Positions 24,751 to 54,591 of a stretch of 64,000 nt of DNA are shown here, piece after piece. Numbering within the stretch: position 1 is the first letter of the stretch; each line of letters opens with the position of its first letter. The stretch comes from Brasilonema angustatum HA4187-MV1 (lineage in GTDB: Bacteria > Cyanobacteriota > Cyanobacteriia > Cyanobacteriales > Nostocaceae): positions 140,570 to 204,569 of the forward strand of contig JAHHGV010000008.1 of assembly GCA_019359695.1 (NCBI GenBank). Reading direction: 5' to 3'. A model generated the notes under the pieces. That model saw only the letters and a list, made by a program, of their open reading frames with translations, made no database searches and had not been told where the DNA came from. Made by a program: the position numbers and the translations under genes.

Positions 24751-24872
24751 TCAGATCTTGCAGCAGTATCAATAACGAGGCAGAGCCTCGACATCTCGTT
24801 CCCAGGCTCAGCCTGGGAACGAGGGTTGGGAGGCTCCGCCTCCTAATTATTGAGAATGGGTGCAAGATCTCA
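24751..24872. mobile_element. MITE of the ATCTTGCA family with GTAAAC direct flanks
   Basis: The ends are TCAGATCTTGCA and TGCAAGATCTCA (inverted, one mismatch in 12). GTAAAC is present directly on both sides (24745-24750 and 24873-24878), which reads as a 6-base target duplication. The interior has two strong hairpins (CGTTCCCAGGCT/AGCCTGGGAACG and GGAGGC/GCCTCC). It ends 32 bases before the YcaO start codon, so it makes up most of that gene's upstream region. Confidence 0.8.
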
Positions 24873-24904
24873 GTAAACAAACAACTAATAACGAGCAACG
24901 AGCA

Positions 24905-27211
24905 ATGCAACCTAAACCCCAATTCAATCCTTGTTACTCAGTTGAAACTATAGAAACAGACAATGTATTTTTGTTGTCTGAGAGAGAAAAAGTTTGGTTA
25001 AGCGATCGCCTTTCTTGTAGTTTAGCTGCTTTGATAGATGGCGATCGCAATATTGACGAAATTATAGATACCATTCAACAGTCGCTACTGCAAGACCCAA
25101 AATCTTTACAGTCAGCTACCACCTTCTTCCAAGAAGTTCTCAATATAAGTATTAAAGCCCAATATGCTTTATTCCAAATGCAACAAAAGGGCTATCTTGT
25201 TCAAGAAGATAACTCTGTTCCATCGCACTTAAGCATATTCTGCCATCATCTCAATGTTGCTCCCACAGTAGCCCATCAAAGATTGCGATCGACTAAAGTA
25301 GCAGTAAAAGCTAATGGTTCAGTTGCGGCATCTGACTTGATTGCTGTGCTTGAGTCTCTCCAAATTCAAGTAGCAGACGAAGGTGATTTGACAGTAGTTT
25401 TAACTGATGATTATCTCAATCCTGAGCTAGATAAATTTAATCAACAAGCCTTAAAATCCCAATCTCCCTGGATGCTGGTTAAGCCATTAGGGACAATAGT
25501 TTGGATTGGTCCTTTATTTCATCCTCAGAAAACAGGTTGTTGGAACTGTTTAGCCAAGCGTTTGCGAGATAATAGACCAATTGAAGGGTTTATTCAGAGA
25601 CAAAAGCGCATTTCTTCCCCTTTAACTTCTCCTTTGGGATTTTTGCCATCTACAGTACAAACTGCATTAGGAATGGTAGCCACAGAGGTGTTTAAGTGGA
25701 TTGTCCAAGGAGAAAATAAACAATTAGAAAGTAATTTGATTGCTTACGATGCGATCGCACTGCAAACTCAAAATCATACCTGGGTGAAGCGTCCTCAATG
25801 TTCTAGCTGTGGAGAGATGGTAAATGGGTTAACCAACAACCCCCTGCCTGTTGTTTTAGAACACCGCCAGAAAACCTTTACCGTCGATGGAGGACACCGT
25901 ATTTGTTCGCCACAAGAAACTCTCAAGAAATATCAGCATCATATTAGCCCCATTACTGGCGTTGTGCGAGAACTAAATAAAATTCCTGGGAATGGATTAA
26001 CTCATAATTACATTGCCAAACATCATTTTCTCAGTATTTTCGACGATTGCGCTAGTTTGCGCCAAAATTTGGGGGGTAGAAGTGCAGGGAAAGGTAGGAC
26101 TGACTCTCAAGCTATGGCTAGCGGTTTCTGCGAAGCGATCGAGCGATATTCTGGGGTGTTTCAAGGGTATGAAATTAGAGAAAAAGGCATTTACCAACAA
26201 ATGGGGGACAAGGCGATCCATCCCAATGTTTGTATGAACTTCAGCCAACAGCAATATCAGAATAGAGAGCAATGGAATGCTGAGTGTCAAGGCTGGTTTC
26301 AAAAAGTCCCCGAACTTTTTGATGAAGAAAGAGAAATTGACTGGACTCCCGTTTGGTCTTTAACCCATCAAGAATTTAAGTATCTGCCAACGGCTTACTG
26401 TTATTATGGCTATCAACCGTCTTATAAACCCGACTGTTGGGCTGATTCTAATGGATGTGCGGCGGGTAATACTCTTGAAGAAGCAATTCTGCAAGGGTTT
26501 ATGGAGTTAGTAGAGCGCGATGCTGTCGCGTTATGGTGGTATAACTCCCTGCAAAAGCCTCAAGTGGATTTAGATAGTTTCGACGAGCCTTATTTTCAAA
26601 GCCTGAAGCAATATTATCAAACTATTAATCGGGAACTTTGGGTTTTAGATATTACCAGCGATCTCAACATTCCTGTCTTTGCTGCTATTAGTCGCAGAAG
26701 CGATCGCCAAGTAGAAGATATTGTTTTGGGTTATGGCGCTCATTTCGATGCCAAGATTGCTATTAGTCGAGCCTTGACTGAAGTTAACCAAATTTTACCT
26801 AATGTTTTATTAACGCAAGCCGATGGCAATACCCAATATCCTCCATCAGCAGATCGCTTGGCGGTAGATTGGTGGACAACTGCGACTTTGACAAATCAAT
26901 CTTATCTAGTTCCCGATAATCGAGTTGCTGCTAAAGTCGCAGTAGATTATCCTCAAATTGCCAGTGACAATCTTTTAGAAGATATTAAGCTGTGTCAACA
27001 AATCGTCGAGAAAAACGGTATGGAAATGCTGGTTTTAGATCAGACTCGTCCTGATATCGAACTGAAGGTAGCTAAGGTAATTGTTCCGGGGATGAGGCAC
27101 TGGTGGAGTCGGTTAGGTGGAGGGAGATTATATAAGGTTCCGGTCAAAATGGGTTGGTTGAAAGAAACCTTGACGGAGGAGGAACTTAATCCTTTCCCGA
27201 TGTGGATGTAA
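24905..27211 (+). CDS. TOMM/azoline cyclodehydratase fusion (leader-binding E1-like domain + YcaO)
   Basis: 768 residues. The N-terminal 100 residues resemble a PqqD-like leader-recognition domain. The next 200 are an ocin-ThiF/E1-like part with structural zinc cysteines CWNC (about 218) and CSSC (about 300). The rest is a YcaO ATPase with the nucleotide motifs SGFCEAIER and QGFMELVER, and it ends PFPMWM, a short form of the Pro-rich catalytic C terminus. It would convert Cys/Ser/Thr of a precursor peptide to azolines using ATP. ATG 24905 is preferred to the GTG at 24860, which lies inside the MITE. No precursor peptide or dehydrogenase is visible nearby. A broken partial copy lies at 42395-42750. 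Confidence 0.88.
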   Translation: MQPKPQFNPCYSVETIETDNVFLLSEREKVWLSDRLSCSLAALIDGDRNIDEIIDTIQQSLLQDPKSLQSATTFFQEVLNISIKAQYALFQMQQKGYLVQEDNSVPSHLSIFCHHLNVAPTVAHQRLRSTKVAVKANGSVAASDLIAVLESLQIQVADEGDLTVVLTDDYLNPELDKFNQQALKSQSPWMLVKPLGTIVWIGPLFHPQKTGCWNCLAKRLRDNRPIEGFIQRQKRISSPLTSPLGFLPSTVQTALGMVATEVFKWIVQGENKQLESNLIAYDAIALQTQNHTWVKRPQCSSCGEMVNGLTNNPLPVVLEHRQKTFTVDGGHRICSPQETLKKYQHHISPITGVVRELNKIPGNGLTHNYIAKHHFLSIFDDCASLRQNLGGRSAGKGRTDSQAMASGFCEAIERYSGVFQGYEIREKGIYQQMGDKAIHPNVCMNFSQQQYQNREQWNAECQGWFQKVPELFDEEREIDWTPVWSLTHQEFKYLPTAYCYYGYQPSYKPDCWADSNGCAAGNTLEEAILQGFMELVERDAVALWWYNSLQKPQVDLDSFDEPYFQSLKQYYQTINRELWVLDITSDLNIPVFAAISRRSDRQVEDIVLGYGAHFDAKIAISRALTEVNQILPNVLLTQADGNTQYPPSADRLAVDWWTTATLTNQSYLVPDNRVAAKVAVDYPQIASDNLLEDIKLCQQIVEKNGMEMLVLDQTRPDIELKVAKVIVPGMRHWWSRLGGGRLYKVPVKMGWLKETLTEEELNPFPMWM

Positions 27212-27239
27212 AAATTAATTAAACTAAACTTACCCCAGA

Positions 27240-28091
27240 TTAGAAATTCATACGTCTCGCAGTAACGAGATAGTGATTAAAAACACTTGAAGTTGGACTC
27301 GATACAGGGGAAGTCCAACGACCGTAGTTTGCTTCTGCTTCTCCCAGAACTACAATCCTTGGTTGCCTTGGCTGCCATCCATAGTGCAAAATGAATTGCT
27401 CAGGATTGGAGACACCAAAATGCCAAGGACATCCCAGTTTTCTGAGCTTAGAGAGAAATGGTTGTGCATAGGGAGAGTTTAGAAGCTGTGCTTCAACGAA
27501 GTCCATTCCAAGCCAGCTACCTGGACAGGCAAGACTTTGTAGTGTCTCAAGCACAGTCGCTACAGTCGCGGGTTTTAGGTAAAACATCAGTCCCTCGAAC
27601 AGAAATGCTGCGGGTTTATGTCGGTCAAAGCCAAAGTCGGTAAGAGCAGTTGCCCAATCCTGTTCCAAGTCTGTTACTACGACCTTTCGTACACACTGTG
27701 CTCTAGCATTCAAATTTAGAAGGATAGGCTCCTTGTATTGAAATATTTCTTGACGATCTACTTCAAATAGTTGAACGCCATCCATCCAGGGCAAGCGGAA
27801 AGCACGGGCATCCATTCCGGATGCTACCAGAACAACCTGCTTGAGAGATAATTCATGGACAGCCATCAGTAAAGCATCATCAAAAAAACGAGTCCGAATA
27901 GAAATACCAGGATGTGGATCATTAGCTGACAATCCCGGGGAAAATGCCCTCAAATCTGAGAACAGTGCAAACCCCCTGTCACTGGCAAAAGCCCGAGCAT
28001 ATGTATCTACAAACAACCGTTGTCGATACTCAGTTTCATATGCTCGTGCTGCTGCAACATATAGCGATGTAACGCCGACAGAACTCAACAT
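27240..28091 (-). CDS. Class I SAM methyltransferase, LCMT/TIGR00027 family
   Basis: 283 residues. SAM-binding motif I VLVASGMDARAFRLPW and the following acidic pair (LFEVDRQEI) are as in the leucine-carboxyl-methyltransferase-like family, with AFLFEGLMFYL as motif III. Members methylate small molecules or carboxyl groups; the substrate is unknown. It is tail to tail with the YcaO gene (28 bases apart), so it may or may not belong to the same pathway. A second member of the family lies at 53773. Confidence 0.88.
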   Translation of the reverse strand: MLSSVGVTSLYVAAARAYETEYRQRLFVDTYARAFASDRGFALFSDLRAFSPGLSANDPHPGISIRTRFFDDALLMAVHELSLKQVVLVASGMDARAFRLPWMDGVQLFEVDRQEIFQYKEPILLNLNARAQCVRKVVVTDLEQDWATALTDFGFDRHKPAAFLFEGLMFYLKPATVATVLETLQSLACPGSWLGMDFVEAQLLNSPYAQPFLSKLRKLGCPWHFGVSNPEQFILHYGWQPRQPRIVVLGEAEANYGRWTSPVSSPTSSVFNHYLVTARRMNF

Positions 28092-28349
28092 AAATACATT
28101 GATAAAATTAGTTCATCATGGTAATATCAGGGCAATACAACAAAGCAATTTACTCTTTATTGCTCATTATTTTAACGAGTCACTAGCGAGAATGAATATT
28201 TTACTCTCTCTAACTGATAGTTAAAAGCCTGATTCTTTCATAATTGCCTAGTCGTGTATTAACTCTCTCCTAAGAAATCGCAAGGTTTCCTTACATCCAT
28301 AAGGCGAGATCGCGCTTAAACAGCTTTTAAGAAATATTTCTGTTTCTTT

Positions 28350-28525
28350 GTATCGATTTTGAATGTGATCGCTTTCCTTGAACGCTCTTGTCAGGCTGGG
28401 TTATCAAATTTGAAAATGCAGCCAATTAAAGAGCATCACTGGTTATGGTTTTCCTGTGAGATGAGTGATTTCAAGATTTTTCATCACATCAACATTTAGT
28501 GAATTTATGAAAATAGGAGATTGAA
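28350..28525 (+). promoter_or_regulatory. Conserved 176-nt leader, copy 1
   Basis: This stretch matches 29219-29394 with 4 substitutions and no gaps, and each copy ends exactly at the start codon of a paralogous gene. It contains ATCACT (28435-28440) and AGTGAT (28464-28469), able to pair, and AGGAG at 28515-28519, 6 bases before the ATG. It probably holds promoter plus 5' untranslated region. Confidence 0.75.
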
Positions 28526-29191
28526 ATGGAATCCCAAGATTTACGTGATACATTTTTCGATCGTTTTTTATTACAAGCTAAGCTAATTTCTCAGCTCGTT
28601 ACATTTTGGTGGACATATAGTGAGGAGGATGAGGAGGATGATAATAATGATCAAGATAAAACAAAGGCAGCAAATATTCTAGGACAATGTTTCTTTCCAG
28701 GTTTTTCTGAAGTAGATCCTTTCATAGCTCCCCCGAAATTACGTTATCTATTTTCAGCCGACCCCAGACAACACCTTCAGGATATTAATAATGGTTCTCC
28801 TACTGATTCATTTGGCAATACTGATGAAAACCCTCTGGGACTACATGTTAGTACGCTTATTACAGTCTTTGGTTCAGACCGTATTAACAACCAAGAAAAA
28901 TATCTTTCTCCTATATTCACTTCTACTGAACTAGGGTTAGACAAAGACAAAAATAATTCTCCGTATTACGAATTTAGAATTGATAATAGCGGTACAAAAT
29001 TTGGCCGACTTACTGATCCTGAACTGGTTCCAACGGACGAAAATTTAACAATAAAATATATATATACTATTCCAATTCCTCCACGCCATCTAGATCCACA
29101 CTATCCAAAACATAAGCGGATCTATGAAAAATGGATCTCAGATCAAGAAAATACATATCCTCCTAGTATGCATATACCCTTTACTACTTAA
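28526..29191 (+). CDS. Unknown protein, tandem paralogue 1 (FWW/IPFTT family)
   Basis: 221 residues, cytoplasmic by composition, and no known domain recognised. The conserved N-terminal block (MESQD, then FLLQAKLISQLVTFWW) is followed by an acidic, Asn-rich variable region. The conserved C-terminal block has YLSPIFTSTELGL, GTKFGRLTDPEL, KYIYTIPIPPR and the end IPFTT. One cysteine only. The start is fixed by AGGAG at 28515. The next gene is a paralogue that keeps the two end blocks but differs in the middle. A radical SAM gene follows both on the same strand. Function unknown. Confidence 0.85.
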   Translation: MESQDLRDTFFDRFLLQAKLISQLVTFWWTYSEEDEEDDNNDQDKTKAANILGQCFFPGFSEVDPFIAPPKLRYLFSADPRQHLQDINNGSPTDSFGNTDENPLGLHVSTLITVFGSDRINNQEKYLSPIFTSTELGLDKDKNNSPYYEFRIDNSGTKFGRLTDPELVPTDENLTIKYIYTIPIPPRHLDPHYPKHKRIYEKWISDQENTYPPSMHIPFTT

Positions 29192-29218
29192 TGAAGGCGT
29201 TAGAAGCCAATAATCCTA

Positions 29219-29394
29219 GTATCGATTTTGAATGTGATCGCTTTCCTTGAACGCTCTTGTCACGCTGGGTTATCAAATTTGAAAATGCAGCCAATTAAAG
29301 AGCATCACTGGTTATGGTTTTCATGTAAGATGAGTGATCTCAAGATTTTTCATCACATCAACATTTAGTGAATTTATGAAAATAGGAGATTGAA
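29219..29394 (+). promoter_or_regulatory. Conserved 176-nt leader, copy 2
   Basis: Second copy of the leader at 28350, offset by exactly 869 bases. The differences are one base near 29264, two near 29334-29338 and one near 29339-29340. The ribosome-binding site and hairpin arms are unchanged. It starts 28 bases after the stop of paralogue 1. Confidence 0.75.
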
Positions 29395-30051
29395 ATGGAA
29401 TCCCAAGATTCAATATGTGATGATTTTTTAAAGCGTTTTTTATTACAAGGTAAGATAATTTCTCAGATCATTACGTTTTGGTGGCGATATGATGATAACG
29501 AGAAAGCAACAGGAGATGATCCAAAGAAAATAGAGATAGCAAAGCTTTTAGGAGAATATTTCTTTCCAAACGAGCCCGCTAGTTCACCAGGTAGGCTTTC
29601 CCCCTCTCAATTTTTAATTGAGCTATTTAAAACCGAAAGTAGGCTTTCCCCGTCTCCATCTTTAATTGACCTATTTAAAGCTGATCCCAGATTACATATT
29701 AATGAAGAAAATCCGGAAAAATCTGTTGAGGTGCTAATAACGATCTTTGGCCGAGATCGTATTTCTAACAAAGAAACATATCTTTCTCCTATATTCAATT
29801 CTACTGAACTGGGCTTAAACAACAGAAATAATCTTGCACGTTACGAATTTGAAATTGATATTAACGGTACAAGATTTGGCAAGCTTACTGACCCTAGAAT
29901 AATAATAGAGAATGACAATTCACTGTTGAAATATATATATATTATTCCAATTCCTCCACGCCCTAGAATAGATAATATGATCTATGAACAATGGATCTCA
30001 AATGAAAATGACAATTATCCTCCTAACCAATTAATACCCTTTACCACTTAA
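29395..30051 (+). CDS. Unknown protein, tandem paralogue 2 (FWW/IPFTT family)
   Basis: 218 residues, the same architecture as the gene before it: MESQD, FLLQGKIISQIITFWW, then a variable middle holding an internal duplication (RLSPSQFLIELF and RLSPSPSLIDLF), then YLSPIFNSTELGL, GTRFGKLTDPRI, KYIYIIPIPPR and IPFTT. The coding identity to paralogue 1 is visibly much lower than that of the leaders. No signal peptide, no membrane span, no catalytic motif recognised. A factor-independent terminator follows at 30218. Confidence 0.85.
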   Translation: MESQDSICDDFLKRFLLQGKIISQIITFWWRYDDNEKATGDDPKKIEIAKLLGEYFFPNEPASSPGRLSPSQFLIELFKTESRLSPSPSLIDLFKADPRLHINEENPEKSVEVLITIFGRDRISNKETYLSPIFNSTELGLNNRNNLARYEFEIDINGTRFGKLTDPRIIIENDNSLLKYIYIIPIPPRPRIDNMIYEQWISNENDNYPPNQLIPFTT

Positions 30052-30217
30052 TAAAGGTATTAGAAACCGATAGCTTTAAGCTGGAATAATTATTATTCAG
30101 CACTATTATAGGGTTTCTTAAGCAACTTAGACACACCTAAATCTTTTCTAGCAAAAGAAGCAGCTTTAAAAACATACCTCACCAGGTTGGGAATCGTTAT
30201 AAGTTAAATATTGATTG

Positions 30218-30248
30218 ACCCACAGCTAGGAACTGCTTGTGGGTTTTT
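30218..30248 (+). terminator. Rho-independent terminator after the tandem paralogues
   Basis: ACCCACA and TGTGGGT form the stem, with a loop of about 14 bases, followed by TTTTT. It separates the paralogue transcript from the radical SAM gene, although read-through is possible. Confidence 0.75.
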
Positions 30249-30304
30249 ATATAGATATTGCCACTAAAAAACGTAGAGATAGATAATATCAATAGGTAAT
30301 AATT

Positions 30305-31735
30305 ATGATTATTAAAGATCCCCAAAAAATGTTACCAAGTCAAATTAAAGTCGAGGGGGAAATGCGGGACATGATACTGGAAATTCCTCCCCATAATATT
30401 CCCTTACATCCCAAAAGTATAGAAAAACTTTTTGCCGCCATCAAATTTGGAGAGCAAGCGGTAGCTTTCAGACCTTTCATACCAATTGCATCAGACTTAG
30501 GTTTATGTCCACCCTATCCTACGTTAGCCTACTTATATCCTCAAAAGTTAAATCATAACGAAGATATTGAGAAGCAGTTGTTACAGAAATCTGGCAAGAT
30601 AGCACAGAATACCCTTGATGCTTTAAATCAATTTACCCTGATTTCCCAAATTGATATTGAGGAGCAGCTACATTACTTTGGTGATTTCTATGGAATAGCG
30701 GCAAAGCCATCCTATATAAGAGTTGTCGTGAGCAATACCTGTAATCTCAAATGCGTCATGTGTCCTTATCACAGCACTTCGCTGAAATTAACTCATACAA
30801 CAGACTTCTTTAAGAGCAACAAAACAATGTCTTGGGAAATGATGGAGCGTCTCGCCAAAGATTGTGGAGAAGCAAAAATCATGATTATTCTTGGGAACGT
30901 CGAAGAACCAATGCTACACCCCAACCTTGTCAAATTTGTCGAACTTTGTCGGCAGCAAGGGGTTCCTGGGGTTCATCTGACGACCAATGGTCAACTCCTA
31001 GATGAAAATCGAGCTAGGTCTTTACTGAAAGCGGGCTTAACCAGTATTGATATTAGCATTGATGCCGCAGATCCAGATACCTATCTCAAGATTCGGGGTG
31101 CTGACCTCAAGCGAGTTGAAACAAATGTCTTCAATTTTTTGAAGCTGCGGGATGAATTAGATATTCCCTGTTATGTAAGAACATCTTTTGTGAGAAATCA
31201 AAATGTTACACTGGATGAAGAAGAAAGATTCCGAGAACGTTGGCTTGCAAAAGCTGATGGCGTATTTATCAATAACGTAGCTCAATATAAAGAAACTAAT
31301 ACGCGCCTCGGTAAAACTAACCAGACTGTACAAGCTTTACTAAAACACTATCTGAAAAAAGCTCAGGGACGTTGGCCATGCCTGTTTCCCTTTACTGAAA
31401 TGGCTGTTTTACCCGATGGCAGAATTTATTACTGTGTTGAAACTTTATTTAGATTGGGCTTTGATCAGACTCTTGAAAGTTTAGGAGATTATAATCAACA
31501 AACATTACAAGAGATTTGGCATGGGGAGCTATTCAAGCAGCTTCGACGAGATTTGCTCCTTAATCAGTTAGAACATAGATCAGCCTGTAAAAGTTGTGAA
31601 CTATGGATGGCACAGGTTTTGTCTAGAGAGTCTAAAAATGGGTTTGAGGTTACGACAACCACAATAACCGAGATTTATCAGTCTGGTTTTAGGCAACAGA
31701 GAACGGAAAACGGGGAACATAAATCTTCAAATTAA
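30305..31735 (+). CDS. Radical SAM/SPASM protein
   Basis: 476 residues. The radical SAM domain (about 135-340) has the cluster motif CNLKCVMC (CxxxCxxC) and a GNVEEPMLHPN segment for SAM binding. The SPASM-like C terminus (about 355-460) carries CLF, YYCVE and CKSCELW, ligands for an auxiliary Fe-S cluster. SPASM enzymes modify ribosomal peptides or proteins, or act on small molecules. The 135-residue N-terminal region is unassigned. Context: two unknown paralogues upstream, a giant kinase downstream, a YcaO gene 3 kb away. Confidence 0.88.
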   Translation: MIIKDPQKMLPSQIKVEGEMRDMILEIPPHNIPLHPKSIEKLFAAIKFGEQAVAFRPFIPIASDLGLCPPYPTLAYLYPQKLNHNEDIEKQLLQKSGKIAQNTLDALNQFTLISQIDIEEQLHYFGDFYGIAAKPSYIRVVVSNTCNLKCVMCPYHSTSLKLTHTTDFFKSNKTMSWEMMERLAKDCGEAKIMIILGNVEEPMLHPNLVKFVELCRQQGVPGVHLTTNGQLLDENRARSLLKAGLTSIDISIDAADPDTYLKIRGADLKRVETNVFNFLKLRDELDIPCYVRTSFVRNQNVTLDEEERFRERWLAKADGVFINNVAQYKETNTRLGKTNQTVQALLKHYLKKAQGRWPCLFPFTEMAVLPDGRIYYCVETLFRLGFDQTLESLGDYNQQTLQEIWHGELFKQLRRDLLLNQLEHRSACKSCELWMAQVLSRESKNGFEVTTTTITEIYQSGFRQQRTENGEHKSSN

Positions 31736-31831
31736 GTGCAATATCTAAGATCAAACTGTAACTTCATGACTCCAAGAAACGCTATACCATACAATCAGAA
31801 ATAAAGAGATTGGTGAGTTAGGAGTGTTAGT

Positions 31832-34800
31832 ATGAGAGCGATGGCAGAATATCACATTAGTCAGAAGATATATGAAAGTTATAATTCGCTAGTCTATCGG
31901 GCTAATCTCAAGCGAGATAATCAACCAATTATTCTTAAAATTCTTAAAGAGAACTATCCAACTCCCTCAGAATTGACTCGATATAAACAGGAATATGAAA
32001 TCACACGACATCTGAACGTAGATAGCATTATCAAAGCCTACGACTTACAGCGATATGACAATAGCCTAGTCATGTTCTTAGAGGATTTTGGCGGGAAATC
32101 CCTAAAACTGTTAATGTCTGAACGCAGGTTCAGTATAGAAGAAATTTTCATCATTGCCATTAAGACCTCTGAAAGTTTAGCTGCTATTCATGCAGCCAAT
32201 ATTATCCATAAAGACATTAATCCCTCCAATATTGTCTATAATCCAGAAACTAAACAACTGAAGATTATTGATTTTGGCATTTCTACCCGTTTATTCCAAG
32301 AAAACCAAATCCTTTGTAACTTAAATCAACTAGAAGGTACTTTAGCCTACATTGCACCAGAGCAAACTGGCAGAATGAATCGAGGAATAGATTACCGCAG
32401 TGACTTTTATTCCCTTGGTGCAACCTTGTATGAACTCCTAACGCATCAACTCCCCTTTGCAACCACTGATCCAATAGAACTGGTTCATTGCCATCTTGCA
32501 CAACAAGCAAACCCGCCTCATGCACTCATCCCTACTATTCCCTTGACGGTATCCAAGATCGTTATGAAATTGTTAGCTAAAACCCCAGAGGAACGATACC
32601 AAAGTGCTTGGGGGCTAAAAGCTGATTGGGAAATTTGTTTTAAACAGTGGCAGACTCAGGGACAAATCCTGCCCTTTCCACTAGGACAGCAAGATATTTC
32701 CGATAAGTTTCACATTCCCAAAAAACTCTACGGACGGGAACAAGAAGTTTCTCAAGTGCTAAGCACCTTTGAGCGAGTTAGCCAAGGTACCACTGAGATG
32801 ATATTGGTTGCTGGCTATTCAGGGATTGGTAAATCTGTCTTAGTTCAGGAAATTCACAAACCAATTGTAAGGCAGCGAGGTTATTTTATAACTGGAAAAT
32901 TTGACCAATTCAAGCGAGATATTCCCTACGCTGCTATTAGCACAGCTTTCCAGGACTTAATCCGTCAACTCTTGAGTGAATCTGACACAGATATCGAAAT
33001 TTGGAAAGCACAAATTTTGGAACTCTTGGAACCTAATGGGCAGGTCATAATTGACGTAATCCCTGAACTAGAAAAAATTATTGGTAAACAGCCGTCTGTT
33101 GAAAAACTTGGAGCTAATGAAGCCCAAAATCGATTTAACTTATCTTTTCAAAGATTTATTAGCGTTTTCAGTCAACAAGAACATCCTTTAGTCATTTTTC
33201 TTGATGATTTACAGTGGGCAGATTTGCCTTCACTGAAGTTAATTGAACAGCTAATTACCGATTTTGATAGTAAATATTTATTGATTATAGGAGCTTATAG
33301 AGATAATGAAGTCAACCCCACTCATGCTTTAATTCTGACGTTAGAATTAGTTAAAAAAGCAGGTGTTAGGGTCAATGAAGTCATCCTAACTTCCTTGAGA
33401 TTAGAGCACATAAATCAATTACTTGCTGATACACTACTTTGTTCTACAGAGATGTCAAAACCGCTAGCAGAGTTACTAACAAACAGAACTCAGGGCAATC
33501 CCTTTTTCTTAACTCAACTGCTAAAATCTCTGTACGATGAAAACCTTATATCGTTTGATTATAATGGACAATCATGGTGTTGGAACATTGAGCAGATTTT
33601 AAAAACAGGCATTACTGATAATGTCATAGATTTGATGGTTAGTAAAATTAATAAACTCAGTGAGAATACCCGGAATGCTTTAAAGTTAGCAGCATGTATT
33701 GGTAATAGATTTAACCTAGAACTACTCTCCGGCATTAGAGACAAATCTAAAACCTCCATAGCTCAAGATATTCAACCAGCTCTTCAGGAAGGGTTAATTG
33801 TCCCACTGAGTTATGATTACAAAATTCCCTTGCTTTGGGAACAAGGAGAAATTTCAAGTGATTCTTCAGCCGTCTCTTCTAATTTTATTCCTAGTTTTCC
33901 TTCAGTTATTCCCTACAAATTTTTACATGACCGAATTCAGCAAGCGGCTTATACTCTAATTGCAGAAGGAGAAAAGAAGCTCATTCATCTGCAAGTCGGA
34001 AGACTTCTGCTGAAGAATATGAGAAAAGATAAAAGTGAGGAAAATATTTTTGATGTTGTCAATCAACTTAATGAAGCAGCATCTCTCATCACTGATCAAT
34101 TAGAAAGAGATGAGCTAGCTCAATTAAATCTTTACGTAGGTAAAAAAGCTAAGGCATCAGCTGCTTATGAACCAGCATTGAAATATTTAGAGACTGGATT
34201 AGAACTTCTAACAAAAAATAGTTGGGAAAGCCAATATGAATTGACTATAGAGCTTTATTTGGAAACACTTGAGGTGCTGTACTTCAACACCAAATTTGAG
34301 AAAGTAGAAGAGCTTTCTATATTTATTCTGCAACACACTCAAGAAATTCTTGATAAAGTAAAAGTGTATCAAGTAAATATACTAGTATACAATTCTAAAT
34401 CCCAGGAGCAACAAGCAATAAATACTGCTCTTAAAGCTTTAGCAGAACTAGGTATAGAAATATCTCAAGAGCCTAGCGAAATAGAAGAGAGAATCAAGCA
34501 AGAACAAATATTTCTAGATATATTTTTGAAAGAAGTACCAGTTCAAAGTTTAGCGAATCTCTCTCCAATGACTGATCCATATAAATTAAAGGCTATACCA
34601 TTATTGCAACAAATTATAGCCTCTACAATAATCACTAATTTCCTCTTGCATATTGAAGTTGTTTTAATTCAACTTAATCTTTGCCTAAAATATGGTAACC
34701 CTCCTCAAGCACCCTGTCCTTATATATTTTATGGAACGTTTCTCTGCAAGGGAATAGAAAATATTGGTTTAATGAGAGATATTCATTTAGGCAATGAATT

Positions 34801-37600
34801 TGGAGAATTGTCTATTAGTTTACTATCCGAATCTCAACTTCCTGAACTAGAGACTCTAGTTATTCATATTTACTATGCATTTATATATCAATGGAAGAAC
34901 TCCCTCAGAAATAATATTGCATTAGAAAGATTAATCAAGGCTTTTCAAAGGGGATTAGAGACTGGGGATTATCAATATGCTTGTTTTGCATCTGCAAGCA
35001 TTTGTCTTATTAAATTCTTCGGAGGGTATCATCTAGAAGAAGTTTCTCAGGAGCTTGCAAAATATACTAGGCTAATGAAGAAATTAAAACAAGAATATAC
35101 TTACTCTTCTGTAACTATATATGAAAAAACCACGATTAATTTAATTGAAGGATATGAAAACAACTTTTGCTTGGTAATTGGTCGTAATCAAGAAGAAGAA
35201 GAGGAATGTATAAAAACTGCTAATATTTGGCTTTTATGTTGGTTGTGTATTGCCAAAATAATCACACATTATATCTTTAAGGAAAATAACTTTGCTATTG
35301 GTAATGTATTGAAAATTGAAAACTATGTTGAATATCTTAGTTCACATTTAAATTTATCACAATACAATTTTTTCTCTTCTCTATCACTGCTTGCTAATTA
35401 TGAGATTATAGATGTATACTCACAAAATAAGTTTTTGAAGCTAGTAGAAAAAAACCAGGAAGATATGAAAACCTGGTCTAGCTACTGCCCAGAAAATTTT
35501 CAGCACAAATCTGATTTAGTAGAAGCAGAAAAAGCTAGAGTATTAGGACAAAATTGGCAAGCAGAAGAATTGTATGAAAAAGCAATTCAAGGTGCTAAAA
35601 AACATGAGTTCATCCACGAAGAAGCCATAGCTTACGAACGTGCAGCAGAATTTTATCTTGCCTTGGGTAGAGAAGAAATAGGGAAACTATACTTAAAAAA
35701 TGCCCATCATTGTTATAGTCGCTGGGGCGCAAAAGCCAAAGTTCAAGCCCTAGAATCGGAGTATCCACAGTTTCTAATGGATATAAACAACCGAAAAGAA
35801 GACCAAACCATTAATACAACTGAATCTACTGATGGTACAAATCCCCAAGTACTCGATCTCATCACAGTCACAAAAGCATCTCAAGTATTAGCTAGCGAAA
35901 TAAAACTAGACCAACTGCTGGCTAAGTTAATGAAAACTGTAATTGAAAATGGAGGTGCTCAAAAAGGCTTTCTGATATTGGAAAAAGATCATCAATGGGC
36001 GATCGCAGCTGAAAGTACAGTAGATTCTGATGAGGTTACTTTACCGCGATCGCTTCCCATTGATTCTATAGATGGCGATACGCAGACACCTATCTTACCA
36101 GTTGCGATCGTTAACTATGTTGTCCGTACTCAAGAAAATGTAGTTCTTAATAACGCTACTGAAGAAAAACAGTTTATCCGCGATCCCTATGTCGTCGCCA
36201 CTCAACCAAAATCGATTCTCTGTACTCCTTTGTTAAATCAAGGCAAACTAAGCGGTATTTTATATTTAGAAAACAATTTAGCCACAGGCGCATTTACCAG
36301 CGATCGCATTGAAGTTTTAAGAATTCTTTCTGCTCAAGCTGCTATCTCCATTGAAAATGCCCGTCTCTACGGACAGTTAGAAGATTATAACCGAAATCTA
36401 GAGCTGAGAGTCGAAGAGCGCACTCATGAACTCTCACAAACCCTAGAAGTTCTTAAAGCCACCCAAGCCGAACTGCTGTTTGAAAACGAGTTACTCAAAA
36501 GCGCCGAACAACCGTCTACCTTTGACTATCAAGTGGGAGGAAGTTTGCCGATGGATGCTCCCACTTATGTTGTACGTTCAGCAGACCGTTATCTCTATAA
36601 GGCGTTGAAGCGCGGAGAATTTTGTTACACTCTCAATCCTCGGCAGATGGGCAAGTCAAGTCTGATGGTACGCATGATACATCACCTCCGGCATGAGGGA
36701 TTTAGCTGTGGGGCGATCGATCTGACTCGGATTGGTAGCGAAAACGTCACGCCTGATCAATGGTACAAAGGCTTAACAGTAGAGCTATGCCGAAGTTTTG
36801 GTTTACTAAGAAAGATTAATTTAAAAACTTGGTGGCAAGAGCAAGGAGATATTTCTCCGGTTCAGAGGTTGAGTCAATTTATTGAAGAAGTTTTGCTAGT
36901 TGAAGTTGCTAAAAATGATAATACTATCTCTAAAAACCTGATAATTTTTATTGATGAAATTGATAGCTTCTTAAGTTTAAATTTTCCAGTTAATGACTTT
37001 TTTGCGTTAATTCGCTCTTGCTATAATCAGCGTAGTATTAATCCAGAGTATCGACGTTTAACCTTTGCTCTTTTTGGAGTAGCTACCCCTGGTGACTTAA
37101 TTACTGACCACCAAAGAACGCCTTTTAACATCGGTCAGACTATTCAATTGGAAGGGTTTAAAGAGCATGAAGCCCAGCCTCTACTTCAGGGATTGGCAGA
37201 GAAAGTGAGCAATCCTCAAACAGTTTTAAAAGAATTGTTAGCCTGGACTAATGGTCAGCCCTTTTTGACCCAAAAACTCTGTAAAGTCATCCGCAATTCT
37301 TCATCTCCTATTCCTACCAACAGAGAAGCCGAATGGATTGAAAATTTGGTGCGAACTCAGGTAATAGAAAATTGGGAATCACAGGATGAACCAGAACATT
37401 TAAGAACTATTCGCGATCGCCTCCTTAATAGCAAACAATCCGTTCGGCTACTAGAACTTTATCGACACATTTTGCATCAAGGAGAGATTGTTGCAGTTGA
37501 TAGTTCAGAGGAAAGAGAATTGCTTTTATCGGGTCTAGTAGTCAAGCAACAGGGAAAATTGAGAGTTCAGAACCGTATTTATGAATCTATTTTTGTTTGA
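31832..37600 (+). CDS. Multidomain Ser/Thr kinase - AAA ATPase - GAF - AAA_35-like ATPase
   Basis: 1922 residues, one open frame. Order: Hanks-type kinase (about 8-270; [13 protein letters not shown]), AAA_16 ATPase (Walker A GYSGIGKS near 330, Walker [11 protein letters not shown] near 456), a long TPR-like helical region (about 700-1310), GAF (about 1345-1520), a coiled coil, then a second ATPase (about 1565-1922; Walker [10 protein letters not shown] near 1603, Walker B FIDEIDSF near 1706). Known cyanobacterial relatives carry a histidine kinase after the GAF; here it is replaced by an AAA_35-type ATPase like that of the next gene. AGGAG at 31820-31824 fixes the start. It is probably a signal-integrating regulator. 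Confidence 0.9.
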
Positions 37601-38107: not shown

Positions 38108-38441
38108 GATAAACCTTAATTTCTGGTTCAGAAACCCGGTTTTTTGGGTCTTGTTGAGAATGGTGAGCCAGCGCGTTGCGGTGAATCCAGCGCGAATGAC
38201 GGCTTTCCCGACAGAGGCGACTGGTGTTAGCGCAGCGAGACCGGAGGTCTTCCCCGAAGGGGGGTTCCCGAGCCACTGCGTTGGGCGGCTGTGCCGACTT
38301 GTAGCATGTGGCGTCCCGTTGAAGCACCTGGCGTGGTTTCCCCGATGAGCGACGCAATACTTTTGTACTAATAAATGGCAGATATTGTGTTACTTGCGCA
38401 ACTCCTGTTATCTTAATTAGTAGCATTTGTCTGTAATCTCT

Positions 38442-39797
38442 ATGAACCTTGATTGTCTCTTTGAGATTGTTGACCGCCAATTAATTGAGAGCCACAATCG
38501 CCCCCTTAATTCCGCAGAAAACCTGATTCTGCATGGCATTTGGCAATATAGAACTTATAACCAAATGGCGATAGAGGCAGGTTATAGTCCCGGCTACTTT
38601 ACCAATGTCGTTGCCCCAGAGTTGTTTGGGCGACTCTCCGAGGTCATTGGTCAGCGCGTGACCAAAAAAAACTGTCGGGTGTTGCTGGAGTCTTATGCCA
38701 TCACCAAAGAAGCCCCAAAAACAATACCAAAAAGACAAGACCTGACGCAATTTCCCCCCATACTTAACCAGGATACGTCACCTTGCTACCCCAGCGGCTC
38801 AGTTCCTCTTGACTCTCCTTTTTACCTCAAACGTTCTTACCTTGAGGAGCAAGTTTATCAAGAAATTAAGAAACCAGGAGCGTTAGTCAGGATCAAAGCT
38901 CCCAGAGAAATGGGCAAAACTTCACTGCTGCTGAGAATTCTTGATTATGCGAACCTCCAGGGCTACCACATTATCCGCTTGAATCTAGAACAAGTCGAGC
39001 AGACAATTCTGAGCGACTTGAATCAACTTTTGCGCTGGTTGTGTGCCAATATCGCCCGCCAGCTTCAGCTTCAACCAATGTTAGACGAGTATTGGGATGA
39101 AGATTTGGGAAGTAAAGTTAGCTGCACCGTCTACTTTGAAGAATATCTACTAGAGTCAATTCATACTCCCCTGATCTTGGCGTTGGATGACGTGAACCAT
39201 ATTTTCGAGCATCCCCAAGTAGCGAAGGATTTTCTACCTCTGTTGCGTTCTTGGTACGAAGAAGCGAAAAGACTGCCCATTTGGCAAAAGCTTCGTCTAC
39301 TCGTGGTTCACTCAACAGATATTTATGTTCCTCTCGAACTTAATCAGTCTCCTTTCAATATAGGGTTACCGATTCAGTTAGACAGCTTTAGCCAAGAAGA
39401 GGTAGAGCAGTTAGCCCAACGCTATGGACTCAATTGGACAGATGGGGAAGGAGCCAGACAATTAATGACAATGGTCGGGGGACATCCGGCACTAGTACAC
39501 TTAGCACTCTATCATCTAGCTCGAAAGGAGATAACTCTGTCGCAACTGCTAGAAACTGCTCCCACTGCTAGCGGAATTTATTTTCATCATTTGCAGCGTC
39601 ACTGGGCAACCTTGCGAAAACAGCCTGAGTTAGCACAAGCTTTTGATATCGTTGTGAATGCCAATGAAGCTGTTTCTTTAGATCCCATTTTAACTCACAA
39701 GTTAAGCAGTATGGGGCTGATAAAACTTTCTGGAACTCAAGCGATCGCAGGTTGTGAATTGTATCGGCGATTTTTTACGAAAAAGGGAGAGTTATAG
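38442..39797 (+). CDS. HTH plus AAA_35-like ATPase (vWA-MoxR-associated N-terminal type)
   Basis: 451 residues from the ATG at 38442; a TTG at 38427 would add five. The N-terminal 90 residues (LNSAENLILHGIWQYRTYN, QMAIEAGYSPGYFTNVVAP) form the winged HTH found at the start of vWA-MoxR-associated proteins of cyanobacteria. The ATPase part has Walker A APREMGKTS (about 158-166), Walker B LILALDDVNHIF, and TPT/HPAL-type sensor segments near the end. Families of this build are proposed, from comparative genomics, to be NTP-driven conflict or signalling switches. The ATPase is homologous to the C terminus of the kinase upstream. The gene lies between repeat complexes. Confidence 0.8.
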   Translation: MNLDCLFEIVDRQLIESHNRPLNSAENLILHGIWQYRTYNQMAIEAGYSPGYFTNVVAPELFGRLSEVIGQRVTKKNCRVLLESYAITKEAPKTIPKRQDLTQFPPILNQDTSPCYPSGSVPLDSPFYLKRSYLEEQVYQEIKKPGALVRIKAPREMGKTSLLLRILDYANLQGYHIIRLNLEQVEQTILSDLNQLLRWLCANIARQLQLQPMLDEYWDEDLGSKVSCTVYFEEYLLESIHTPLILALDDVNHIFEHPQVAKDFLPLLRSWYEEAKRLPIWQKLRLLVVHSTDIYVPLELNQSPFNIGLPIQLDSFSQEEVEQLAQRYGLNWTDGEGARQLMTMVGGHPALVHLALYHLARKEITLSQLLETAPTASGIYFHHLQRHWATLRKQPELAQAFDIVVNANEAVSLDPILTHKLSSMGLIKLSGTQAIAGCELYRRFFTKKGEL

Positions 39798-53772: not shown

Positions 53773-54591
53773 TCAACCTAATTTCACTAAAGCCAAGCGA
53801 TAAGAATTTCCTAGAAAAGCAACATACGAAAATAGCAGGCGAAATATTAAGGGAAAACGCTGAAAATATTTTGCTGGCAGATCTGCAAACCCACAAGCTT
53901 CCATCACTTGATATCGGGAATCCCAATGTTGAATCTGGCGAATATCTGAGATACCCCAAACCATCTTTGCCGAAGTGTACTTAAGCGCTCCATGTCTATT
54001 TTGATTCTTAATCCAAAACGGCGACACAGAATCAAAGGCAAACCAAGAACCAGGAAAATGCTGTAAAAGATTAGTAAATAACTGTTTGACTTGCTGTTCG
54101 TTAAAATACATCAAAACTCCTTCTGCTACAAACAAGCAAGGTTCTGTACTAACTGCTTTTACACTTTCTATCCAGTCTGTCTCTAAAGCAGAAGCAGTGA
54201 TAAACTTACGGCGTTCAGTTTCCTGAAAAAACTGCTTGCGCAGTAACATTGAATCTGGTAAATCTAAATCAAACCAACGCACTTCACCGTTATCCACTCG
54301 TTCAAAGCGCGTGTTCAGTCCAGCACCAATCTCGACAACCGAACCTTGGGGATGCTGCTTGAGGTAGGTACGTACCCAATTGTCAAGAATCATCCCTCGC
54401 AGACAAACACCTATCTGAGAGTTTTTAGCAGGAGCAAATTTATTAAAGTTGTAATCAATTGCCTCAAGTATTTCAGCCGATTTGGGATCACAAATGATAG
54501 GCTCGGTTTGCTGTAGTTCAGCAGCTCTTGCCCAAAGAGGGATGAATAGTGTTTCTTGTACGATACCTAAGTCAACTTTGGTTTTAGTCAT
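53773..54591 (-). CDS. Class I SAM methyltransferase, LCMT-like (Tcmp type)
   Basis: 272 residues. SAM motif I VVEIGAGLNTRFERVD, acidic motif WFDLDLPDS, and LFVAEGVLMYF are present. These proteins are related to leucine carboxyl methyltransferases and to TcmP; the substrate is unknown. It is not close to the other member at 27240 in detail. Single-gene. Confidence 0.88.
   Translation of the reverse strand: MTKTKVDLGIVQETLFIPLWARAAELQQTEPIICDPKSAEILEAIDYNFNKFAPAKNSQIGVCLRGMILDNWVRTYLKQHPQGSVVEIGAGLNTRFERVDNGEVRWFDLDLPDSMLLRKQFFQETERRKFITASALETDWIESVKAVSTEPCLFVAEGVLMYFNEQQVKQLFTNLLQHFPGSWFAFDSVSPFWIKNQNRHGALKYTSAKMVWGISDIRQIQHWDSRYQVMEACGFADLPAKYFQRFPLIFRLLFSYVAFLGNSYRLALVKLG

What the first reader, a model, noticed from the sequence alone, without database searches (positions are those of the whole stretch)
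28350..30051. Tandem paralogues whose leaders are nearly identical while the proteins differ
The 176 bases before each start codon differ at only 4 positions with no gap (offset 869), whereas the two proteins have diverged clearly, with indels in the middle and conserved end blocks (FWW, STELGL, IPIPPR, IPFTT). Normally coding sequence is the better conserved part. Either the leader is under strong selection (shared regulator or RNA element), or leader gene conversion keeps it uniform, or the unit leader-plus-variable-gene is a cassette exchanged as a module. I recognise no family for the proteins.
Basis: seen in the sequence. Interest (0 to 1): 0.8.

Follow-up and report, generated by a model that had tools for sequence, protein, structure and literature searches.

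The report
Swappable precursor genes sharing copied leader
In a cyanobacterium of the Nostoc family, two neighbouring genes share an almost identical upstream stretch although their proteins differ at nearly half of the aligned positions; they are likely two alternative versions of a protein that nearby enzymes are predicted to modify at its constant tail, and the upstream stretch was likely copied by recombination rather than kept by selection.

Summary
In detail: the 176 bp before genes A and B differ at 4 sites without gaps, while the proteins are 54% identical. A regulatory leader held by selection is not supported: between strains the leader diverges 10-15%, like the adjacent spacer, with no Rfam match and no favourable covariation. 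A and B are old lineages that occur singly at the same locus elsewhere, each with its own 3' flank; in three of four P347 tandems elsewhere the repeated upstream piece is a stub of the upstream gene. The leader is best read as a recently copied recombination flank. The proteins lie among a fused YcaO cyclodehydratase, a methyltransferase, a radical SAM enzyme and a giant kinase; short relatives in the same slot link them to NHLP (proteusin) RiPP precursors, although A and B match no family model. The usual logic looks inverted: the C-terminal tail [ILV]-P-x-[STC] is nearly constant (67 of 68; control 1 of 519), while the A-type body evolves at omega about 0.8-1.3, against 0.12-0.32 for neighbouring enzymes. 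The cluster is a mosaic with an imported cassette of about 9 kb. Tail modification and function are inferred. Closest known: NHLP-Burk TOMM clusters.

The parts
24860..27211 (+). fused E1-like/YcaO cyclodehydratase, 783 aa, with a winged-helix N-terminal stretch
   Evidence: Pfam YcaO 6e-105 and DUF4423_like 2e-8; NCBIfam TIGR03604 and TIGR03882 above cut-off
27240..28091 (-). LCM-family (leucine carboxyl methyltransferase-like) SAM methyltransferase, 283 aa
   Evidence: Pfam LCM 2e-46; TIGR00027
28345..28541 (+). leader repeat, copy 1 (176 bp non-coding part 28350-28525)
28526..29191 (+). gene A, 221 aa, predicted NHLP-derived precursor protein
   Evidence: no Pfam/NCBIfam match; profile link to the short NHLP-like group; AlphaFold2 model pLDDT 80, pTM 0.82
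29174..29188 (+). codons of the constant tail IPFTT of A
   Evidence: alignment; tail count 67 of 68 family members
29192..29213 (+). remnant of the A-type 3' flank, then junction to leader copy 2
   Evidence: alignment with L007/L008; in-register comparison
29214..29410 (+). leader repeat, copy 2
29395..30051 (+). gene B, 218 aa, second version of the precursor protein
   Evidence: B clade with three other sources, support 100/100
29591..29684 (+). internal tandem duplication in B (46 nt, spacing 48, 87% identical)
   Evidence: family D7
30034..30048 (+). codons of the constant tail IPFTT of B
30052..30304 (+). B-type 3' flank (253 nt between B and the rSAM gene; A-type flank in L007/L008 is about 360 nt)
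30305..31735 (+). radical SAM/SPASM enzyme, 476 aa
   Evidence: Pfam Radical_SAM and SPASM
31832..37600 (+). 1922-aa Ser/Thr kinase - AAA_16 - GAF - AAA_35 protein
   Evidence: sub-threshold match to TIGR03903 TOMM kinase/cyclase
38427..39797 (+). separate AAA_35 NTPase, 456 aa; its relatives lie upstream of the YcaO in many other loci
26700..35700 (.). stretch nearest to the LCM-type clusters (L007, L008, L023), flanked by DNA nearest to amidohydrolase-type clusters: likely imported cassette
   Evidence: borders good to about 400 bases

Best explanation
Genes A and B are two old, fast-diverging versions of one predicted RiPP-type precursor protein, and their near-identical leaders are likely a recently copied recombination flank, not an RNA element under strong selection. 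Shown: the leader pair is far more alike than the gene pair; A or B occurs alone at the same locus in other genomes; the 3' flank changes with the version; the cluster is a mosaic. Inferred: strains exchange precursor cassettes by recombination in conserved flanks, and here a second version was added beside the first with a copy of the flank. The proteins are inferred to be highly derived nitrile-hydratase-like leader (NHLP/proteusin) precursors whose constant C-terminal tail (IPFTT; family rule [ILV]-P-x-[STC]) would be changed by the fused YcaO cyclodehydratase, with further steps by the methyltransferase and the radical SAM enzyme. The variable body would be the part under diversifying selection. 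No dedicated protease or exporter recurs beside these genes and A and B lack a Gly-Gly site, so the modified protein may act whole inside the cell, possibly read out by the giant kinase; this last step is the least certain.
For: Leader p 0.023 against A-B dS 0.52; between-strain leaders 0.097-0.149, spacer 0.068-0.151, rSAM and LCM dS 0.07-0.16. A alone in L007 and L008, B alone in L023, same gene order; 3' flanks by type; B clade 100/100. Upstream-gene stubs between the copies in 3 of 4 P347 tandems. Mosaic. NHLP link: L111, L095, L096 hit TIGR03793; A/B profile against the short-group profile 99.0%, and 99.1% without L111; short-group profile finds the solved proteusin 8tb1 at 3.7e-6. Tail 67 of 68 against 1 of 519. 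Precursor superfamily in 53 and YcaO in 57 of 59 loci. A-type omega 0.89-1.27 by counting, flanks 0.12-0.32; M2a over M1a 2dlnL 36.6, 0 of 100 null simulations as high.
Against: A and B themselves match no family model, and 5 of the 8 short-group members do not hit TIGR03793 either. A's model has no PDB match at E 0.001. No Gly-Gly site before the tail, by inspection. ML whole-gene omega is 0.83 and omega 1 is not rejected; the site test rests on three sequences, many codons differ at several bases (160 single, 76 double, 27 triple differences over three pairs), and it weakens to 10.1 with A and B together and gap margins removed. 13 C39 peptidase matches exist elsewhere in the genome, none on this contig, so cleavage and export in trans is open. 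Four loci with two precursors, and L088, show only background upstream identity.
Confidence: 0.65

Rival explanations
1. The leader is a conserved regulatory or RNA element (shared promoter, operator, riboswitch or attenuator) held by purifying selection in both copies.
For: A stretch of the leader next to the start codon is well kept in all five sequences; the same promoter-like hexamers occur in both copies.
Against: Leaders diverge 10-15% between strains, like the spacer; Rfam 0 matches up to E 1; covariation term +1.88; z -1.25; promoter-like sites at shuffle level, 13 against 9.6 with sd 2.9.
Confidence: 0.1
2. Ordinary recent tandem duplication of one gene followed by very fast divergence of one copy.
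For: One leader pair, recent copy; bodies evolve fast.
Against: B is closest to B genes of other genomes (dS 0.18 to L023, against 0.52 to A) and carries the B-type 3' flank; A-B synonymous sites have diverged as well.
Confidence: 0.05
3. A and B are an obligate two-component pair, as proposed for the tandem NHLP-Burk precursors, with leaders kept alike for balanced expression.
For: Tandem arrangement with a large kinase, as in NHLP-Burk clusters (PMC2887384 passages).
Against: L007, L008 and L023 have one version each, although the L007 and L008 contigs end about 1.4 and 1.9 kb after the gene and the rSAM gene follows directly.
Confidence: 0.1
4. Assembly artefact: two strains or gene copies joined at the shared leader.
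For: Two related contigs end within about 2 kb of the gene, so the locus can be hard to assemble.
Against: A mis-join at a shared leader would give leader-A or leader-B, not the non-homologous junction between the A-type flank and leader 2; completeness 99.73%, contamination 0.4, contig 204,569 bases.
Confidence: 0.05

Closest known systems
NHLP-Burk TOMM clusters (TIGR03795; Haft et al. 2010, PMC2887384, passages seen)
   Same: Nitrile-hydratase-related precursors, tandem pairs, cyclodehydratase, large Ser/Thr kinase, none of the NHLP transport genes with a close homologue.
   Different: Cyanobacterial; fused YcaO; 200-aa diversifying bodies; constant short tail; methyltransferase or amidohydrolase and radical SAM partners; A and B do not match TIGR03795.
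NHLP/proteusin precursors (TIGR03793; structure 8tb1; PMC2887384 passages, PMC10858898 abstract, PMC12455567 section 4 part 1)
   Same: Folded leader-like body beside a YcaO; short relatives in the same slot hit TIGR03793.
   Different: No Gly-Gly cleavage site, no hypervariable core; here the body varies and the tail is constant.
Nostatin A, azole-containing proteusin of Nostoc (PMC11583998, abstract seen)
   Same: Same bacterial family, NHLP-type precursor with azole formation.
   Different: A 30-residue modified core with known toxicity; here the constant tail is about five residues and no product is known.
TOMM system kinase/cyclase fusion protein (TIGR03903)
   Same: Kinase plus AAA region beside a TOMM-type cyclodehydratase; 129.9 bits.
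   Different: Far below its cut-off of 705.75 bits; GAF and AAA_35 follow, and no cyclase was listed by Pfam.

Membership tests
NHLP leader peptide family (TIGR03793) | match to the curated model above cut-off | tested here: not met
   A and B no match; of 8 short relatives 3 match below the 50.9-bit cut-off: L111 48.4, L095 31.3, L096 30.5
NHLP leader peptide family (TIGR03793) | homology of the body to the NHLP/nitrile hydratase alpha fold | tested here: inconclusive
   Only through the short group: profile match 99.0-99.1%; short-group profile to 8tb1 3.7e-6; model of L095, made with two canonical NHLPs among its rows, has 8tb1 as best Foldseek row at E 0.014. A's own model: no match
NHLP leader peptide family (TIGR03793) | Gly-Gly cleavage motif before the core | tested here: not met
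   absent in A and B by inspection of the sequences
NHLP leader peptide family (TIGR03793) | hypervariable C-terminal core rich in Cys, Ser, Thr | tested here: not met
   tail nearly constant, 67 of 68; Ser/Thr/Cys present
NHLP leader peptide family (TIGR03793) | neighbouring peptidase/ABC export genes | tested here: not met
   no such family recurs in 59 loci; a single-domain ABC ATPase in 6 and an S9 peptidase in 3; none of 13 C39 matches of the genome lies on this contig
NHLP-Burk TOMM (TIGR03795) | match to the model | tested here: not met
   A and B no match; L111 22.3 bits, cut-off 41
NHLP-Burk TOMM (TIGR03795) | large Ser/Thr kinase in the cluster | tested here: met
   31832-37600; AAA_35/kinase family in 45 of 59 loci
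NHLP-Burk TOMM (TIGR03795) | precursors always in tandem pairs | tested here: not met
   single precursors in many loci
TOMM/azoline RiPP pathway | E1-like plus YcaO cyclodehydratase | tested here: met
   TIGR03604 262.8 bits (cut-off 219.25) and TIGR03882 176.5 (cut-off 36.9)
TOMM/azoline RiPP pathway | azoline formed on the precursor | not testable with these tools
   needs expression and mass spectrometry
cis-regulatory RNA leader | known family or covarying structure | tested here: not met
   Rfam 0 matches; covariation term +1.88 over 5 sequences; z -1.25; low power

The most novel reading that the evidence does not exclude
A RiPP machinery turned into a protein-tagging recognition system: YcaO, radical SAM and methyltransferase put a constant chemical mark on the tail of an intracellular protein whose folded body is the diversifying part, kept as competing versions that strains swap as cassettes, with a giant kinase and an AAA_35 NTPase as read-out, as in self/non-self or phage conflict.
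Probability: 0.22. Interest if true: 0.88.

Novelty: new variant of a known kind. Interest (0 to 1): 0.58.

Why it matters
In published NHLP systems the leader is kept and the core varies (PMC2887384, passages). Here the likely modified tail is kept and the leader-like body varies, with signs of diversifying selection, while genomes differ in which version they hold. That points to a RiPP-derived pathway whose product could be a tagged protein rather than a small secreted peptide. YcaO relatives occur in 87 of 217 genomes of the family at E 1e-60 (this includes a second YcaO type near 50% identity), so the question is open in many strains. The constant tail gives one short prediction that a single mass-spectrometry experiment can test.

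Tried and rejected

Weak points kept in view. Alignment A4 holds two canonical NHLPs (L109) and L111, so its PDB hits and the model made from it lean towards NHLP; A2 (with L111) and A6 (without) were used for the main argument, but A6 was not run against the PDB. IQ-TREE: omega 1 not rejected for A-type, B-type or A+B precursors (2dlnL 0.86, 0.01, 1.97), rejected for rSAM 67, LCM 31, YcaO 245. Counting omega: 1.27, 1.27, 0.89 for A-type pairs and 0.96 for the B pair; other rSAM-associated precursors 0.49, 0.89 and 1.39, the last with dS 0.02; precursors without rSAM are slow: P347 0.21-0.33, L028-type 0.06-0.19, short type 0.16-0.30, 297-aa type 0.19-0.23. The tail count leaves out slot proteins that BLAST did not join to the family: L068 ends YIPVYTS, L100 ILPLGCV, L103 IFLIGS; two of these three break the rule. 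Membership was set by homology to which the tail itself contributes. The first claim that no protease or exporter family recurs was checked again: an ABC ATPase (PF00005) is found in 6 of 59 loci at differing distances and an S9 peptidase in 3 of 59 related loci, and the genome has 13 C39 matches elsewhere; the claim was narrowed and the odds of the novel reading lowered slightly.

Full report
OBSERVATION. The 176 bases before A (28526-29191) and B (29395-30051) differ at 4 sites with no gap at offset 869. The repeat runs into the first five codons and ends abruptly on both sides. The proteins are 54.5% identical over 198 aligned codons, with indels, dS 0.52. Leader and protein each occur twice in the 8.5-Mb genome, only here. 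So the leaders (p 0.023) are much younger as a pair than the bodies.

SETTING. The genome is of the same family as the Nostoc contigs found; its own name is not given. Around A and B lie a fused E1-like/YcaO cyclodehydratase, an LCM-family methyltransferase on the other strand, a radical SAM/SPASM enzyme, a 1922-aa Ser/Thr kinase-AAA-GAF-AAA_35 protein and a separate AAA_35 NTPase. A and B match nothing in Pfam or NCBIfam at E 1.

THE LEADER. Three other genomes hold the same order with one gene: L007 and L008 carry A, L023 carries B. Leader distances between strains are 0.097-0.149, those of the adjacent spacer 0.068-0.151, and synonymous distances of rSAM and LCM 0.07-0.16. The leader is thus not unusually constrained, and the pair inside the window shares a recent copying event. 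No RNA element was found (five leaders, low power).

A AND B ARE OLD LINEAGES. The window's B groups with B proteins of three other sources with support 100/100; it is the only one of seven inner branches that meets the strict criterion. dS is 0.18 for W2-L023 and 0.19 for W1-L007, against 0.52 for W1-W2. The 3' flank also differs by version: about 360 nt after A in L007 and L008, about 254 nt after B in L023 and in the window, and a short A-type remnant after A in the window. After this remnant leader 2 begins without shared sequence. Of the 4 leader differences, by inspection, three look new in copy 2, and at the fourth copy 2 agrees with L023. Duplication followed by replacement of the body, fusion of two alleles with like flanks, and later conversion of the leader all remain possible.

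THE SAME THING ELSEWHERE. Of four loci with two P347-type precursors in tandem, three (L076, L079, L081) carry between the copies a stub matching the 3' end of the upstream amidohydrolase gene (64-118 aa, 59-81% identity); L088 does not. Upstream identity in those three is 67-77% against 33-36% for the proteins; L088 and four further two-precursor loci (L024, L025, L026, L031) show background, 41-48% (the L025 value is not a fair one, since its second entry is a piece of a broken gene). So a duplicated upstream flank can accompany the addition of a precursor, and there it is a gene fragment and not a leader.

MOSAIC. In 400-base steps against all loci held, the first 1.8 kb of the YcaO gene is nearest to amidohydrolase-type clusters (94-97%; LCM-type 82-93%), the stretch from about 26.7 to 35.7 kb is nearest to LCM-type clusters (91-98% outside the precursor region, 78-89% within it), and the C-terminal part of the kinase returns to the other type (91-96%; L023 74-83%). 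The loci come from one family, so nearer sources may exist.

TAIL. 67 of 68 family sequences end in [ILV]-P-x-[STC] plus one to three residues (position 4: S 35, T 30, C 2); the exception ends YMPLSTS. Of 519 other ORFs of 100-450 aa in the same loci, overlapping frames included, 1 matches. Three slot proteins that BLAST did not join were not counted, and two of them break the rule. Ser, Thr and Cys are the residues that YcaO cyclodehydratases turn into azolines (PMC12455567, section 4 part 1). That this happens here is inference.

BODY. Flanking enzymes have omega 0.12-0.32 and A-type genes 0.89-1.27 by counting. Site models favour a class above 1 (16-18% of codons) for the three A-type genes, also with gap neighbours removed, beyond all of 100 null simulations; the rSAM control shows none. 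The whole-gene ML value is 0.83, and the caveats are in Tried and rejected. The fast class goes with the rSAM gene: all 10 rSAM loci carry such precursors, 0 of the 59 other loci with a YcaO do (these 59 include loci of the second YcaO type and are not the 59).

HOW IT LIKELY WORKS. Inferred: the YcaO binds the folded body and changes the constant tail; LCM or amidohydrolase and, where present, rSAM add further steps; strains swap versions of the body by recombination in conserved flanks. Whether the protein stays whole in the cell is open: the cluster brings no C39 peptidase and A and B lack a Gly-Gly site, but 13 C39 matches lie on other contigs. Kinase and AAA_35 as read-out is the least certain step.

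KNOWN RELATIVES. NHLP-Burk clusters have tandem precursors, a large Ser/Thr kinase and no close homologue of the NHLP transport genes (PMC2887384 passages). The kinase here hits TIGR03903, TOMM kinase/cyclase, at 8e-38 but far below its cut-off; generic kinase and AAA similarity may explain that. The present system differs in the fused YcaO, long diversifying bodies, constant tail and partner enzymes, hence new variant of a known kind.

Noticed in passing
L024 (G172 contig C7) and L082 (G172 contig C37): One genome has the cluster split: AAA_35, P347, precursor, rSAM and kinase on one contig without a YcaO in the stretch, and a YcaO plus amidohydrolase without a recognised precursor on another, which suggests that they work in trans.
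   Followed up: no
L100:10362-12396 and L103:7964-8578: Other protein types (about 186-204 aa, starting with a WSRV.AFAW helix) occupy the precursor slot beside the same YcaO, amidohydrolase and kinase; no Pfam relative of a known precursor family and no NCBIfam match.
   Followed up: partly
L104-L107, precursors of 297-316 aa: Long precursors with two SQLIA.SWL-like segments, as if two bodies were fused; tails EWIPYTC or RWIPLTC.
   Followed up: no
window 29591-29684: A 46-nt unit repeated at spacing 48 inside gene B, in its length-variable region.
   Followed up: no
window 53773-54591 (-): A second LCM-family methyltransferase gene lies 26 kb away from the first.
   Followed up: no
G000 contig C62:94552-96849 (L110): The genome has a second YcaO of a different type, about 50% identical to the first.
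   Followed up: no
L109:6790-7107 and L109:7940-8257: Two nearly identical canonical-looking NHLP genes (Gly-Gly, short core) in tandem near a YcaO 55-57% identical to the window's.
   Followed up: partly
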